40,088 nucleotides of DNA from Nitrospira sp. CG24B. Lineage in GTDB: Bacteria > Nitrospirota > Nitrospiria > Nitrospirales > Nitrospiraceae. The stretch lies in assembly GCA_002869845.2 (NCBI GenBank), contig NEWS02000004.1, positions 400,022 through 440,109 on the forward strand, given 5' to 3'. The notes beneath the pieces were generated by a model. The model searched no databases. It was given only the letters and a program-made list of their open reading frames with translations, and was not told the DNA's origin. Both the position numbers and the translations under genes were made by a program. Positions 1 through 3,901 of the stretch are shown one piece after another (within the stretch, counting starts at the first letter, position 1; each line of letters opens with the position of its first letter).

Positions 1-58
1 CCTGGTCCAGGAAGAATCTTTGTCTTTGTGAACAAGCCCATGAGCAAGGAGGTGGCAC

Positions 59-418
59 GTGGCTGCTCCCACCGTCCCGCAGGCGGTACAATCATGTCAT
101 GAGTTGCTCTTATGGCTGGTTCCGCAGCTCGATAAGTTTCCTCGTACCCGTCGCTTTACATTGGGCGAGCGCATCGAAACGGGGTTGCTTGAGGTCTTGG
201 AGCTGTTGGTAGAAGCGGCGTACACTCGGAATAAGGACACATCCCTGCGACGCGCAAATCTGAAACTGGAGGTCGTGCGGCACCTCTGGCGACTTGCGCA
301 TGAACTGAAAGTGACAGCCACCCGCCAGTATGAGCACGGTGCGAGGCTCATCGATGATCTCGGTCGGCAGATCGGCGGCTGGCTCCGCAGTCAACCGACG
401 AGTGAGCCACACGCATGA
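59..418 (+). CDS. avd: Avd-like DGR accessory variability determinant
   Basis: This 119-residue, mostly helical, basic protein resembles the Avd/bAvd four-helix-bundle family. Avd binds the reverse transcriptase and template RNA of diversity-generating retroelements and is needed for mutagenic cDNA synthesis. The best family signature is the C-terminal half, with LRRANLKLEVVRHL, a RQYEHGARLIDDLGRQIGGWLR-like helix and many Arg/Lys. The start is a GTG at 59 preceded by AAGGAGG at 46-52. Its stop overlaps the RT start (ATGA, 415-418), so the two are translationally coupled. The related 23S rRNA intervening-sequence proteins share this fold, but the adjacent DGR RT and template repeat favour Avd. 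Confidence 0.85.
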   Translation: MAAPTVPQAVQSCHELLLWLVPQLDKFPRTRRFTLGERIETGLLEVLELLVEAAYTRNKDTSLRRANLKLEVVRHLWRLAHELKVTATRQYEHGARLIDDLGRQIGGWLRSQPTSEPHA

Positions 419-1497
419 AGCGACTTGATGGGATCTGGAACAGGGTGACGAGTTTTGAGAATCTGTTGGGTGCGTACCGCAAGGCCCGGCGTGGGAAGCG
501 CAGCAAACCGGGCGTCGCGGAGTTTGGACTCAATTGTGAACATGAGTTGTTAGCACTGCAACGTTCCCTGCTCGAGGGTACCTATCAGCCTGGTGACTAT
601 CGACTATTCACCATCTATGAGCGCAAGCCGCGTGTGATTGCGGCCGCGCCGTTCCGCGACCGCGTAGTGCACCACGCGGTGATGCAGGTGATCGAGCCAC
701 ACCTGGATCGCACGTTCATTTCGGATAGTTATACCTGCCGCCATGGGAAAGGCGTGCATGCGGCGGTGGATCGCTACCAGGCCTGGGCTCAGACCTATCG
801 GTATGTGCTGAAGATGGACATCCAGCAGTATTTCCCCTCCATCGCTCATGACCTACTGAAAGAGAAGCTGCGACGACGGGTCAAGGATGCAGCGGTCTTG
901 GACTTACTCGACCGCATCATCGAGAGTTCGCCGAAGAGCACGGCCGAGCCTCAGTACTTCCCAGGCGATGACCTCCTGACGCCGCTCGACCGGCGAACCG
1001 GCATTCCCATCGGCAATCTCACGAGTCAGTTTTTCGCCAATCTCTATCTTGACGACTTCGATCAGTACGTCAAACAAGCATTGAAGGTCAGGCCGTACTT
1101 GCGATACGTGGACGACATGGTGGTGCTGGACCAGGACAAGACCCGACTGGCGGAGATTCGTGTGGCGGTCCGTGAGCGGCTTGGGATCGACCGGCTTCGC
1201 CTGCATCCGCGTAAGGCGCCTATCTCCCCCGTGGCTGACGGGCTGAATCTCCTTGGATATGTCGTCTATCCCGCGCGTCGACGGTTGCGCAGTGACAACG
1301 GGCATCGTTTTGCCAGGAAGTTTCGCCGCATGGCGGCGGCCTACCAAGCAGGGCGTCTGGAGTGGGCTAAGGTTGTCGCTTCAACCCAGAGCTGGATTGG
1401 CCATGTGCAACATGCCGACACAGAGGGCCTTCGCCGGGCGATCTTCTCCCAGGCTGTATTCACAAGGGGAGCAGGCCAAGAGATGGCCAGCGCGTGA
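415..1497 (+). CDS. DGR-type reverse transcriptase
   Basis: RNA-directed DNA polymerase of 360 residues. Motif A is at residues 133-143 (KMDIQQYFPSI, catalytic D135). The DGR-diagnostic motif 4 is GIPIGNLTSQ at 196-205; other retroelement RTs have QGxxxSP here. The catalytic YVDD box is at 231-234. There is no maturase, integrase or RNase H domain, and the length matches DGR RTs. In known DGRs this enzyme copies a template RNA with adenine-specific infidelity, and the cDNA replaces the variable repeat of a target gene. The ATG start overlaps the avd stop. The 3' end runs into the template repeat, so the last codons and stop are also template sequence. Confidence 0.95.
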   Translation: MKRLDGIWNRVTSFENLLGAYRKARRGKRSKPGVAEFGLNCEHELLALQRSLLEGTYQPGDYRLFTIYERKPRVIAAAPFRDRVVHHAVMQVIEPHLDRTFISDSYTCRHGKGVHAAVDRYQAWAQTYRYVLKMDIQQYFPSIAHDLLKEKLRRRVKDAAVLDLLDRIIESSPKSTAEPQYFPGDDLLTPLDRRTGIPIGNLTSQFFANLYLDDFDQYVKQALKVRPYLRYVDDMVVLDQDKTRLAEIRVAVRERLGIDRLRLHPRKAPISPVADGLNLLGYVVYPARRRLRSDNGHRFARKFRRMAAAYQAGRLEWAKVVASTQSWIGHVQHADTEGLRRAIFSQAVFTRGAGQEMASA

Positions 1498-1602
1498 TCC
1501 GTGGTGGCTCCTGGAACAACAAACCGGAGAACCTGCGTCCATCCAACCGGAACAGGAACACCACCGACAACCGGAACAACAACCTGGGTTTCCGTCTCGT
1601 CC
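1488..1602 (+). repeat. DGR template repeat (TR), FGE-type target sequence
   Basis: Just past and overlapping the RT stop is a non-genic stretch that reads in the frame beginning at 1494 as VIRGGSWNN...NNNLGFRLV. This is the C-terminal signature of formylglycine-generating-enzyme/sulfatase-modifying domains, a very common DGR target fold. Ten Asn codons lie between 1515 and 1583 and all are AAC, the codon that adenine mutagenesis diversifies most. Coordinates are approximate: without the variable repeat the exact ends cannot be set. The reading frame continues past 1602 with no Asn richness. No second copy (VR) was found in this window. Confidence 0.85.
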
Positions 1603-1800
1603 AGTCCGCCCGCACGGCGCGTAGCCGGTCCAGAGTCGATCTGTTTACGGACAGGTCGGGCGAGACAGCGGGTGTCCATGAGCCTGTTTCCCGGTCTCCC
1701 GTCGAAACGGGAAGGCCGAATAGAGGGCCTGGGGTGAGGCGAGTCGAGGCTGTCGGCGAAGCCGATGGCCCCGGGCGCTGCTCCGTCGAGTAGACCAGTC
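1603..1800 (+). other. Post-TR region with stable hairpins, possible DGR RNA 3' part
   Basis: About 200 bases after the template repeat contain no convincing gene. Two compact hairpins are visible: 1697-1712, with a perfect 6-bp stem TCCCGT/ACGGGA and a CGAA loop, and 1753-1765, with a 5-bp stem TCGGC/GCCGA and a GAA loop. In characterised DGRs the RNA flanking TR is structured and binds RT-Avd, so this may be the 3' part of the template RNA or simply its termination region. No T-tract follows either hairpin. Confidence 0.4.
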
Positions 1801-1864
1801 AGAGCCGGATGGGGGGCTCAATATTCAGGACCGGTTCGGCTGAAATGCTCGTCGTGATACTTGC

Positions 1865-1893
1865 TTGCCCAGATTTGAATAAGCCACTATAAT
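1865..1893 (+). promoter_or_regulatory. Sigma70-like promoter for the toxin-antitoxin operon
   Basis: A perfect -10 box TATAAT at 1888-1893 lies 17 bases after a -35-like TTGCCC at 1865-1870. It is 30 bases upstream of the antitoxin ATG and is followed by AGGAGG at 1913-1918. Confidence 0.6.
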
Positions 1894-1909
1894 GGCTATT
1901 AATAAGGCC
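1883..1909. promoter_or_regulatory. Candidate autoregulatory operator of the toxin-antitoxin pair
   Basis: Two inverted repeats overlap the -10 box and the transcript start. One is GCCA at 1883-1886 paired with TGGC at 1893-1896. The other is GGC-TATTAATA-AGGCC at 1894-1909, whose core TATTAATA is a perfect palindrome. Phd/YefM antitoxins commonly bind such palindromes to repress their own operon. The binding assignment is inference. Confidence 0.4.
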
Positions 1910-1923
1910 AGTAGGAGGTAGCT

Positions 1924-2202
1924 ATGCCACAAGTTGATGAGTACGTTTCCGTCAGTGAGGCTAAAAATAAGTTATTGGACCTAATCAGGCGGATGAAGCA
2001 CAAGCAGGAGGTTGTGGCTATTACGCGCGATGGTGTTCCTTCTGCGGTGCTCTTGAGTATGGATCAGTTTGAGGGGCTCGTGGAGACAATCGAAATCCTG
2101 AGCGATCAGAAGTCGATGCGCCCGCTCCGTCGATCCTTGAAGCAGGCTGAGAAAGGGCAGTGGGTGAGCCATGACGCGGTATTTGGACGCGAGAATCTGT
2201 GA
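1924..2202 (+). CDS. Phd/YefM-family antitoxin
   Basis: This 92-residue protein has the N-terminal Phd/YefM DNA-binding fold: YVSVSEAKNKLLDLIRR, then VAITRDGVPSAVLLSMDQFEGL. A charged C-terminal segment (about residues 60-92) is expected to wrap the toxin. It should neutralise the downstream RelE/ParE toxin and repress the operon. The start ATG has AGGAGG five bases upstream. Its TGA stop (2200-2202) overlaps the GTG start of the toxin, typical of coupled antitoxin-toxin translation. Family assignment is firm; the exact partner specificity is not visible. Confidence 0.9.
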   Translation: MPQVDEYVSVSEAKNKLLDLIRRMKHKQEVVAITRDGVPSAVLLSMDQFEGLVETIEILSDQKSMRPLRRSLKQAEKGQWVSHDAVFGRENL

Positions 2203-2492
2203 AAGGCTACCGAGCTCGGTATACGGCGGAAGCGGCTGAGCGAATCCGTAAGTTTCATCCACAAGTCAAACGGGAGATCAAAGAAGGCATCAGGGAGCTA
2301 CTGATCTCTCCGCTCGCAGGTCATTCGCTCCAATTTGAACTCGCCGGACTTCGATCCTATCGTGTCAGGACCTATCGAATTATCTACCGCATTCATGATG
2401 ACGAGTCTTGCCTTGATATTGTCTTTGTCGGTCCACGGCGCAATGTATACGAAGAGCTAAGAACATTGCTGCTCGCAAGGGGGGAGAAGTGA
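2199..2492 (+). CDS. RelE/ParE-superfamily toxin
   Basis: This 97-residue basic protein has the RelE/ParE fold. An N-terminal helical pair (AAERIRKFHPQVKREIKEGIREL) is followed by the strand pattern LRSYRVRTYRIIYRIHDD and a C-terminal IVFVGPRRNVYEEL. In RelE-type members such proteins cut mRNA on the ribosome; ParE members inhibit gyrase. The YRVRTYRIIYRI pattern looks more like RelE/YoeB-type interferases, but the sequence alone does not decide. The start is GTG at 2199 inside the antitoxin stop. It is intact, with no frameshift. It lies about 700 bases from the DGR cassette, a typical accessory-region neighbour. Confidence 0.88.
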   Translation: MKGYRARYTAEAAERIRKFHPQVKREIKEGIRELLISPLAGHSLQFELAGLRSYRVRTYRIIYRIHDDESCLDIVFVGPRRNVYEELRTLLLARGEK

Positions 2493-2494
2493 GT

Positions 2495-2513
2495 AGCCCG
2501 TTCGCCATGGGCT
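2495..2513. terminator. Weak hairpin between convergent toxin and UDG genes
   Basis: AGCCC at 2495-2499 can pair with GGGCT at 2509-2513 across a 9-base loop between two convergent genes. There is no T-tract on either strand, so this is only a possible bidirectional terminator. Confidence 0.2.
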
Positions 2514-2526
2514 TGAAACAGCAAGG

Positions 2527-3183
2527 TTATCCAAAAAGGTCCATCTGAGCTGGCTGGGGGGATTCAATATTCAAAACTGGTGTGGCTGGGGTAGAAGCTG
2601 CGTTCGTTGGCTCAACCGGTGTGGAGTGGCGGTCGAGAAATTCTTTCAGCTTCTTGAAATCTTCTTTCAACGTAACGAGCAGGTTGCCTTGATGCAGAGC
2701 GGCTGCTGGGTGGAGCAGAGGGAACAGCACAAAATCTTTCATGTAGAAGGCCTGTGCCTTCACCTTCGTAATGCCGACTTTCCGCTCCAATAATGTCTGG
2801 GTGGCCCAGTTGCCCAGGGTACAGACCAGTTTGGGGCGAATCAATTGAATCTGCTGCAGCAAGAACGGCTTGCACGTTTCCACTTCGTCTTGCTCTGGAT
2901 CACGATTATTCGGTGGCCGGCACTTGATGACGTTGGCAATGTAGATGTGATCGCGTGAGAGATCTGCCGAGGCCAGGAGGTCATTCAGGATTTTACCGGC
3001 TGCCCCCACGAACGGCTCACCCTTCTGATCTTCATTGAGACCTGGCGCTTCTCCGACAAACATGATACTGGCATGAGGGTTCCCCACGCCGAAGACGACT
3101 TGGCTGCGCCCGAGCTTGGCGAGTTTACATCGCTCGCAGTTGACGAGGGATTGAGCGAGGTCTTGAAGAGGAGTGAGTGTCAT
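2527..3183 (-). CDS. Family 4 uracil-DNA glycosylase (4Fe-4S)
   Basis: Base-excision repair enzyme removing uracil from DNA. Counting from the ATG at 3183 it has 218 residues. Four cysteines placed as in family 4 enzymes (C16, C19, C88, C104) should hold the iron-sulfur cluster. The active-site motif GEAPGLNEDQKGEPFVG is at 44-60 and the second motif LLHPAA at 156-161. A Pro/Thr/Ala-rich tail ends in QMDLFG, which looks like a beta-clamp-binding peptide. A longer reading from TTG at 3243 exists, but the added residues look unlike the family. It is monocistronic, convergent with the toxin gene and divergent from the next exported protein. Confidence 0.92.
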   Translation of the reverse strand: MTLTPLQDLAQSLVNCERCKLAKLGRSQVVFGVGNPHASIMFVGEAPGLNEDQKGEPFVGAAGKILNDLLASADLSRDHIYIANVIKCRPPNNRDPEQDEVETCKPFLLQQIQLIRPKLVCTLGNWATQTLLERKVGITKVKAQAFYMKDFVLFPLLHPAAALHQGNLLVTLKEDFKKLKEFLDRHSTPVEPTNAASTPATPVLNIESPQPAQMDLFG

Positions 3184-3274
3184 GAGGTGTAAGGGCGACG
3201 AAATGCGTAGCGGTATCTTAAAAACGGACAGCCGGGATGTCAATCAACATAATGTGGGTTAGGAGGCCAGTGAA

Positions 3275-3901
3275 ATGGCGATGAAACGGACTTGGATGGG
3301 AAGCCTTTTGGTCGCGATGCTTCCAGCAGTGGTATCTGCGGCATCAGTGGAGCTGGCAGCGTACAGTGATAAGCCGTTGTGTGAACAAGTGGCGAAGTTG
3401 TTTGGAAAAGGGCTGAATGCTGTCCCAGACCTATCAAGGACTGTGGAGTGGACTGCGGTGGTGTTGAAGGGAGAGGGACCAAAGACTAGGCGCTGTTCGA
3501 GTCTCGACAAGGCAAAGATGGATCTGAACAACGATGGGCGCGATGATGTAGTGGTGAAGACCACGTTTTGTATGAAGGGCGCACCGAGTGAGAGTTTCTA
3601 TGTCTTTCCCGCCAATAGTCCGGTCCTCGACCAACTGGCTTGGCAAGACATGAGCCCCCTGTTGGCAACGCACGACAAGTTTGAGCGTACCGGAGGAACA
3701 TATCCGCTGACGTCTCTTCCCATGGACACAGCATCGTCATCTCCTGCGTTGAGCACGGTCTTTACGATTCAACCGTTCCGGCTTGATGGTGTGGCCTATA
3801 TCGGCCTGACCGATGCTCGACGGGAGTGGATGGTCATCGCGAAGTATTGGGGCGGCGAGCGGTTTGAGGATTTGTGCTACCTGCACGCAGGATCTAATTA
3901 A
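3275..3901 (+). CDS. Exported hypothetical protein
   Basis: A 208-residue protein with a clear signal peptide (MKRTWMGSLLVAMLPAVVSAAS, cleavage near residue 23), so probably periplasmic. A DLNNDGRDDVVV stretch near residue 88 resembles the calcium-binding loops of FG-GAP/EF-hand-like proteins that report the content of 'numerical display' repeats, but only one copy is present. Four cysteines after the signal peptide could form disulfides. The start is well supported by AGGAGG at 3261-3266, eight bases before the ATG. The 3' end overlaps the convergent lipoprotein gene by eight bases. I do not recognise a specific family. Confidence 0.8.
   Translation: MAMKRTWMGSLLVAMLPAVVSAASVELAAYSDKPLCEQVAKLFGKGLNAVPDLSRTVEWTAVVLKGEGPKTRRCSSLDKAKMDLNNDGRDDVVVKTTFCMKGAPSESFYVFPANSPVLDQLAWQDMSPLLATHDKFERTGGTYPLTSLPMDTASSSPALSTVFTIQPFRLDGVAYIGLTDARREWMVIAKYWGGERFEDLCYLHAGSN

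What the first reader, a model, noticed from the sequence alone, without database searches (positions are those of the whole stretch)
59..1624. Diversity-generating retroelement in avd-RT-TR order
Seen: an Avd-like protein, an RT with GIPIGNLTSQ and YVDD, and an AAC-rich repeat overlapping the RT stop. Known: this trio defines DGRs, which hypermutate a target protein's ligand-binding face at template adenines. The compact order avd-RT-TR with both junctions overlapping suggests one transcript makes the proteins and the template RNA. The host is probably a nitrifier-related environmental bacterium, where DGR targets are little studied.
Basis: partly seen in the sequence, partly recalled or inferred. 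Interest (0 to 1): 0.9.

Follow-up and report, generated by a model that had tools for sequence, protein, structure and literature searches.

The report
Retroelement mutating a bacterial immune sensor
This Nitrospira-type bacterium carries a gene set of a kind that rewrites one short stretch of a target gene; in close relatives that target looks like an immune receptor, so it would likely let the cell pre-diversify phage detectors, though this genome's own target probably fell into an assembly gap and no activity has been tested.

Summary
In detail: avd (59-418), a reverse transcriptase (415-1497) and an AAC-rich template repeat (TR, about 1486-1604) form a diversity-generating retroelement (DGR) core in a Nitrospira-type genome. 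No adenine-specific variable repeat (VR) was found in the assembly, but a 100-N gap abuts window base 1, and bases 2-31 read LVQEESLSL*, like a target's C-terminus. In sister genomes the gene before avd is an about 880-aa TIR-nSTAND1-FGE protein (two complete, one gapped) or DUF4062-nSTAND1-FGE (one); in UBA6909 its VR differs from its TR at 21 of 32 adenines and 0 of 82 other bases. The likely function is diversification of an NLR-like phage sensor, a kind already proposed by Dore et al. 2024: a new member of a known kind.

Two by-products look newer. Bases 1601-1787 encode a covarying RNA, without Rfam match, that abuts the TR in 15 of 15 testable loci not used to build its model. After VRs, far more than after TRs, lies an array of CTT/CTG units spaced 7-8 nt; as a pattern in ten genomes it pointed to four remote VRs outside my set. 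I propose it marks the recipient site. This window shows at most a trace of it. All function is inferred.

The parts
2..31 (+). likely last codons of the local target gene (LVQEESLSL, stop TGA); bases 2-12 resemble the 3' edge of sister VRs and the bases after it
   Evidence: Read from the sequence. CTGGTCCAGGA compares with CTGGCCCAGGA at the VR end of L062 and CTCGTCCAG at the end of this TR. The contig breaks exactly here at a 100-N gap. Inferred, not shown.
18..27 (+). two CTTT units spaced 6 nt; at most a trace of the phased array seen after other VRs
   Evidence: weak, does not meet the 7-8 nt spacing by itself
59..418 (+). avd, accessory variability determinant, 119 aa
   Evidence: NF033474 101 bits, PF22296 65.5 bits
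415..1497 (+). DGR-type reverse transcriptase, 360 aa; start overlaps the avd stop (ATGA)
   Evidence: PF00078, 8ub7 1.2e-51, tree, motifs
1486..1604 (+). template repeat (TR), overlapping the RT stop; 31 adenines in 1491-1604
   Evidence: the same position holds the TR that explains VRs in L060 and L062
1587..1604 (+). adenine-poor 3' edge of the TR, counterpart of IMH*
   Evidence: alignment with sister VR ends; the name IMH* by analogy with BPP-1 (passages of PMC12875486)
1601..1787 (+). structured noncoding RNA 3' of the TR (spacer-like): helices 1607-1613/1668-1674, 1636-1645/1650-1659 (UACG loop), 1693-1698/1711-1717, 1741-1751/1767-1777
   Evidence: conserved in four Nitrospira-type sequences, falling off after about 1773-1798; covariation; model R1 149 bits, built with this sequence included; some outer pairs of the last helix are not standard pairs in the window

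Best explanation
Window 59-1787 encodes the core of a diversity-generating retroelement (avd, reverse transcriptase, template repeat and a conserved structured RNA behind it), which likely rewrites the 3' end of an immune-receptor-like gene whose last codons probably lie at window bases 2-31 and whose body is probably missing in an assembly gap. Likely steps: (1) avd-RT-TR-spacer is transcribed as one RNA (inferred from overlaps and order). (2) The folded RNA at 1601-1787 would recruit RT-Avd and place the start of cDNA synthesis at the TR 3' edge (by analogy with BPP-1). (3) The RT misreads template adenines (seen only as footprints in sisters). (4) The mutated cDNA would replace the VR of an FGE-domain gene just upstream. 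(5) In sisters that gene is mostly TIR-nSTAND1-FGE: the mutated FGE face would sense an invader, the STAND NTPase would oligomerise and the TIR domain would trigger cell arrest or death (by analogy with antiviral STAND proteins; untested). The C14 TIR-FGE gene is likely a retired or second, remote target.
For: RT and Avd identity. Sister loci: L062 own TR-VR, 21/32 A changed, 0/82 others; L060 16 of 17 mismatches at A. 62 of 86 related loci have A-biased TR-VR pairs (threshold: at least 6 mismatches, 60% at A); the best pair has at least 75% at A in 61 and at least 90% in 40, and 22 have a pair with all mismatches at A. Target architecture: L043 and L040 TIR_2 + nSTAND1 + FGE; L041 TIR_2 + nSTAND1, with FGE sequence before its next gap; L060 DUF4062 + nSTAND1 + FGE, with avd behind it. 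All 70 target proteins scanned have FGE. FGE domain model of L062: pLDDT 84, pTM 0.87; best fold match PvdO 5hha (6.4e-22), T. denticola variable protein 2y3c at rank 17 (1.9e-15). RNA: 34 pairs, 89% of cells paired, 22 pairs with double changes, 0 of 500 shuffles as high on any measure. Gap at base 1; G019 also has N gaps between its FGE and RT and inside the RT.
Against: No A-specific VR found in G000 (90.5% complete). The tail at 2-31 is short, and its phased array is at most a trace, unlike L043 and L062. The architecture of the local target is unknown: one sister has DUF4062 in place of TIR, and L060's VR carries a length change that shifts the frame, so not every sister copy is intact. 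No reads, expression or phage data. TIR and STAND activity were not tested.
Confidence: 0.78

Rival explanations
1. The element is an orphan DGR: nothing useful lies in the gap, and it acts or acted only in trans on the C14 TIR-FGE gene.
For: The C14 TIR-FGE end aligns with the TR without gaps over 114 bases. Its edges match 24/28 and 16/18, 40 of 46 together; the other 24 FGE loci fetched from this genome (some are the same gene twice), both strands, reach at most 21/28, 14/18 and 32 of 46. It is followed by one of only four CTTTN{3,4}CTTTN{3,4}CTTT matches in 3.1 Mb (reversed-pattern control 24). TIR-FGE genes carry A-specific VRs in L064 and L070.
Against: 27 of 83 non-adenine bases differ, 15 of them at third codon positions: long drift, not recent homing. 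Window 2-31 and the sister loci argue for a cis target.
Confidence: 0.14
2. The locus is a decaying DGR that no longer diversifies anything.
For: No live VR found; an IS-like sequence cuts a target-like FGE fragment on C14 (56213-56647); L060's VR has a one-base length difference.
Against: Avd and RT frames are intact; the spacer RNA is conserved and covarying; the RT is 96% identical to RSF1 over 281 residues.
Confidence: 0.15
3. The RT is not a DGR RT but a defence or group II type enzyme with an accidental AAC-rich 3' end.
For: PADLOC lists many RT models, DRT and RT-Cas1 among them, which looks like generic RT similarity.
Against: Avd beside it, tree, 8ub7 as best structure, A-specific pairs in sisters.
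Confidence: 0.01

Closest known systems
Bordetella phage BPP-1 DGR (record AY029185, L140)
   Same: avd-like gene, RT, TR, adenine footprint, structured spacer RNA 3' of the TR (the spacer role from passages of PMC12875486)
   Different: BPP-1 order is VR-bbp7-TR-RT (bbp7 recalled as avd); here TR and spacer follow and overlap the RT end; model R1 does not find the BPP-1 spacer; the phage target is a tail protein
DGR-diversified STAND/CLec conflict systems of Thiohalocapsa and other multicellular bacteria (Dore et al. 2024, PMC10907252; first part of the text with abstract, and searched passages read)
   Same: STAND NTPase plus C-terminal FGE/CLec target, some with TIR N-terminus; proposed antigen sensors. 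A Thiohalocapsa RT (L074) is 60% identical to ours
   Different: Host is Nitrospira-type, a name found there only in a cited title; one avd-RT-TR core with a missing target; I did not place our RT in their clade numbering
Antiviral STAND proteins and bacterial NACHTs (as described in PMC10907252)
   Same: effector - STAND NTPase - sensor layout in sister targets
   Different: the sensor is an FGE domain rewritten by a retroelement; no antiviral assay
Treponema denticola variable protein 1 (2y3c)
   Same: FGE-like fold of the diversified domain
   Different: the solved chain of 294 residues matches our FGE domain profile only; no TIR or STAND part was sought in it

Membership tests
Diversity-generating retroelement | RT of the DGR clade | tested here: met
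   (quick tree)
Diversity-generating retroelement | accessory protein Avd | tested here: met
Diversity-generating retroelement | adenine-rich template repeat next to the RT | tested here: met
Diversity-generating retroelement | VR in the same genome differing from the TR almost only at adenines | tested here: inconclusive
   none found; the place where it should be is a 100-N gap; met in sister L062 and nearly in L060
Diversity-generating retroelement | target domain of C-type lectin/FGE fold | tested here: inconclusive
   met for sisters; own target missing
Diversity-generating retroelement | adenine-mutagenised cDNA and retrohoming | not testable with these tools
   needs reads or an assay
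STAND-type (NLR-like) phage sensor as DGR target | effector-STAND-sensor layout | tested here: inconclusive
   met in L040 and L043, in part in L041, with DUF4062 in L060; own target missing
STAND-type (NLR-like) phage sensor as DGR target | phage-triggered toxicity | not testable with these tools
   no assay
DGR spacer (Sp) RNA | folded RNA directly 3' of the TR | tested here: met
DGR spacer (Sp) RNA | same structure as the BPP-1 spacer | tested here: inconclusive
   R1 does not match BPP-1 at E up to 10; the paper on its structure (PMC11995886) is not held

The most novel reading that the evidence does not exclude
DGRs share a hidden address code: a phased array of three to seven CTT(T)/YTG units, one every 7-8 nt, directly 3' of the variable repeat and missing 3' of the template, is the general form of the mutagenic-homing signal, tells recipient from donor, and marks remote targets across a genome; it is read together with a cross-phylum family of TR-abutting spacer RNAs, perhaps by the Avd ring, one unit per subunit. 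In this Nitrospira the array behind the C14 TIR-FGE gene marks a second, NLR-like target of the same retroelement.
Probability: 0.4. Interest if true: 0.85.

Novelty: new member of a known kind. Interest (0 to 1): 0.6.

Why it matters
Nitrospira run nitrification in soils, waters and treatment plants (general knowledge), and what their DGRs diversify seems little described: my searches for DGR with Nitrospira or Nitrospirota listed no paper with both in its title; Nitrospirae appear in one line of the DiGReF table. A retroelement that rewrites NLR-like sensors there would extend the anticipatory-immunity idea, proposed for multicellular bacteria, to this group. More generally, an RNA model that finds the spacer next to the TR, and a simple phased pattern that points to remote targets, would turn two poorly defined parts of DGRs (what recruits the RT, what marks the recipient) into testable sequence rules.

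Tried and rejected
C14 TIR-FGE as a live VR: rejected, because 27/83 non-adenine differences in the ungapped comparison (an earlier gapped count gave 22/87) do not fit recent homing. No other TR tried explains it clearly better; the L042 TR scores 52.3 bits against 50.7 for the window's, with as many non-A differences (best 25 rows shown).

Edges of the TR in other FGE loci: one search scanned one strand only, which was wrong for loci on the minus strand; one search repeats it on both strands and replaces it.

BPP-1-style hairpin directly after the VR in Nitrospira: no stem of 6 or more bp with a 3-6 nt loop in the window flank, L060 or L043; in L062 only one that lies partly in the VR end. 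That search led to the phased array.

Synteny with RSF1 (L041) to size the gap: judged by eye from ORF lists, no shared flanking genes seen; not pursued. Rfam: one match in 1-3600, an 18.7-bit hit inside the RT gene, below its gathering score of 38.

Against the phased pattern: 10 of 25 distinct sites in ten genomes had no TR match, one of them (L145) behind an unrelated reading frame; the reversed control gave 7 matches against 28. In G068 the control (5) exceeded the matches (4), and G066, the genome of L060, had none. CTTT itself is rare in the control stretches (0.21 and 0.07 per 60 nt against 2.6 after VRs), so part of their missing pairs is composition; the dinucleotide shuffles are the fairer control. 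21 of 63 VR flanks have fewer than three units at 7-8 nt. The looser form in G000 is rarer than its reversed control (4 against 24), so the C14 match is notable by place, not by count.

Against the RNA model: it misses 32 loci that have a called TR, so the family is not shown to be universal; four hits (L045, L046, L131, L139) align over only about 80 nt; the six weaker matches (E 0.039-0.49) are mixed, L103 starting 20 nt behind its TR. Phages: one weak match in seven regions (L162, E 0.017).

A first script for dinucleotide shuffles failed and was replaced. The careful tree did not finish; the quick tree is reported.

Full report
What is there. Window 59-418 is avd (NF033474, 101 bits against a cut-off of 80), 415-1497 a DGR-type RT (best solved match 8ub7, 1.2e-51) and about 1486-1604 an AAC-rich template repeat that overlaps the RT stop. 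Avd and RT share ATGA. The window is contig C15:400022-440109 of a 3.14-Mb, 90.5% complete genome. The closest named relative by RT is Nitrospira sp. RSF1 (L061; 96% over residues 5-285); the host is therefore a Nitrospira or near kin, by inference from RT relatives.

Where is the target? At E up to 0.001 the TR has only one other match in the genome, on contig C14. Directly left of window base 1 lies a run of exactly 100 N, which looks like a scaffold gap. Bases 2-31 read LVQEESLSL* in frame; sister targets end ...GFRLVQDIP* (L043) and ...GFRLAQDFGP* (L040). I infer that the contig broke at the VR and that the local target is in the gap. RSF1 (L041) has N gaps between its FGE sequence and the RT, where VR end and avd should be, and inside the RT before the TR.

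What the target probably is. Of 58 other genomes searched, eight had RTs at 7e-69 or better; I fetched regions of all eight. In L040 and L043 the gene before avd encodes TIR_2 - nSTAND1 - FGE with the VR at its end; L041 shows TIR_2 - nSTAND1 and then, after a gap, FGE sequence. L060 (Nitrospira defluvii MAG) has DUF4062 in place of TIR and avd behind it. L042 matches the RT only from residue 80 on and has no avd match, so its target is unknown. In L062 (the same record as L040) the VR differs from the TR at 21/32 adenines and 0/82 other positions. Against the window TR, the L043 VR differs at 16/31 adenines and 10/83 others, as expected for a VR made from a slightly different TR.

Wider set. 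One scan of named genomes returned 80 loci (capped, more exist). With six further loci, 62 of 86 held an A-biased TR-VR pair (at least 6 mismatches, at least 60% at A); the TR lies 3' of the RT in 51 and 5' in 11. One search listed 85 candidate target ORFs; I gave 70 proteins to one scan: L040 and L043 added, and 17 of the 85 left out as short, in a wrong frame, or surplus to the size limit. All 70 have FGE; 9 have nSTAND1, 11 NACHT, 9 TIR_2, 4 a caspase domain (counts by family, not by combination). Single-protein scans show TIR-FGE (L064, L070), caspase-FGE (L063, L139) and TIR-nSTAND1-FGE (L069, L071), but also FGE alone, FGE with ankyrin repeats (L045) and NACHT-FGE (L075). The RT tree nests the Nitrospira group among gammaproteobacterial DGRs, which suggests horizontal transfer (quick method, long branches noted by the program).

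RNA behind the TR. Four Nitrospira-type sequences are 78-94% alike in 40-column windows starting at 1483 to 1716, then 77% (1746), 61% (1773) and 38% (1798). With ten further sequences, mostly gammaproteobacterial, a four-helix structure shows 89% paired cells, 22 of 34 pairs with double changes, and no shuffle of 500 as high; sliding the partners by 1-3 columns drops pairing to 39-48%. The structure was drawn from these sequences, so some excess is expected. Model R1 searched on 90 sources gave 35 hits at E up to 0.0014, 21 of them not used to build it. One search sets 33 of the 35 against independently called TRs: six have no called TR; in the other 27 the hit starts 1-14 nt before the TR end. 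Twelve of these 27 are model sequences, which begin there by construction, so 15 are independent, among them three with the TR 5' of the RT (L078, L109, L126). Thirty-two loci with a called TR had no hit. On all 41 matches up to E 1, RNAalifold predicts 20 pairs, 19 with double changes (that alignment is fitted to the model). Passages of PMC12875486 say that the BPP-1 spacer folds and recruits RT-Avd; I take this RNA as its counterpart.

Phased array behind the VR. In 63 loci (one VR each, 60 nt after it), pairs of CTTT occur 35 times at lag 7, 47 at lag 8 and 28 at lag 15, against 3.3, 3.4 and 2.8 in dinucleotide shuffles; 300 bp further on and behind TRs there are none at these lags (61 loci each). 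Chains of three or more CTT/CTG units with steps of 6-9 occur in 77.8% of VR flanks, 9.8% of the distal controls, 1.6% of TR flanks and 24% of shuffles. With steps of 7-8 only, 42 of 63 have three or more units in 80 nt. These loci are related, so the counts are not independent. In seven phage DGRs, with a wider unit that I chose after looking, the mean chain is 3.57 at VR ends and 1.43 at TR ends (shuffles 1.60, sd 0.26, highest of 500 2.86); BPP-1 itself scores 2 and 2. By eye, BPP-1's VR end has three TGA triplets spaced 8 and 7 nt, all three changed in its TR.

Prediction test. A strict form of the pattern had 28 matches (25 distinct sites) in ten DGR genomes, against 7 in the reversed control. 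Ten sites are VR flanks already in my set. Of the other 15, four sit behind remote VRs not in it: L147 (16/30 A, 0/92 others), L148 (26/30, 4/105), L149 (7/31, 4/108), L153 (15/25, 4/93). One is behind a diverged copy (L146: 16/26, 22/88) and ten had no TR match. I do not claim that these remote VRs are new to science; remote targets of cyanobacterial DGRs are published (passages of PMC7517822, which suggest cruciforms or homing sites as cis features). Remote targets may have arisen by duplication of gene plus flank, so this shows association, not need. In the window's genome a looser form has four matches, one of them 25 bp behind the VR-like end of the C14 TIR-FGE gene.

Mechanism and limits. 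Shown: gene identities, adenine footprints in sisters, RNA covariation, array association. Inferred: one transcript, recruitment by the RNA, homing into the gene in the gap, phage sensing, cell death. Untested: all activity. That Avd forms a ring is recalled. Searches on array terms and on a conserved DGR RNA listed no paper that I recognised as describing either in general; only listings and some passages were seen, and most subscription papers, including the BPP-1 structure paper, are not held, so this is weak evidence of novelty.

Verdict. The DGR is real and an ordinary member by its parts; its probable NLR-like target fits a published idea. The RNA family and the phased array are the parts a specialist may not expect.

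Noticed in passing
G000 contig C14:101871-103076 (L004:3872-5077): TIR-FGE protein of 401 aa whose 3' end resembles the TR and is followed by a phased CTTT array; likely a retired or second DGR target.
   Followed up: yes
G000 contig C14:56213-56647 (-), L058: FGE fragment 69% identical to the sister DGR target, cut inside the VR region by an IS-like sequence.
   Followed up: partly
window 1924-2492: Phd/YefM antitoxin (1924-2202) and ParE-like toxin (2199-2492) pair beside the DGR.
   Followed up: no
L046 (G052:C1:1585000-1598000): Eight A-biased TR-VR hits around one DGR in a long contig of a genome of the same order: a cluster of FGE genes as targets.
   Followed up: partly
L060:1750-4539: VR of a Nitrospira defluvii MAG is one base shorter than its TR and shifts the reading frame of the target end; assembly error or a real inactive copy.
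   Followed up: no
L147, L148, L149, L153: Remote VRs away from the RT locus of their genomes, reached through the phased pattern.
   Followed up: partly
L145 (G062:C215): A phased array, identical in the 20 matched bases to that of a DGR target in the same genome, behind an unrelated reading frame.
   Followed up: no
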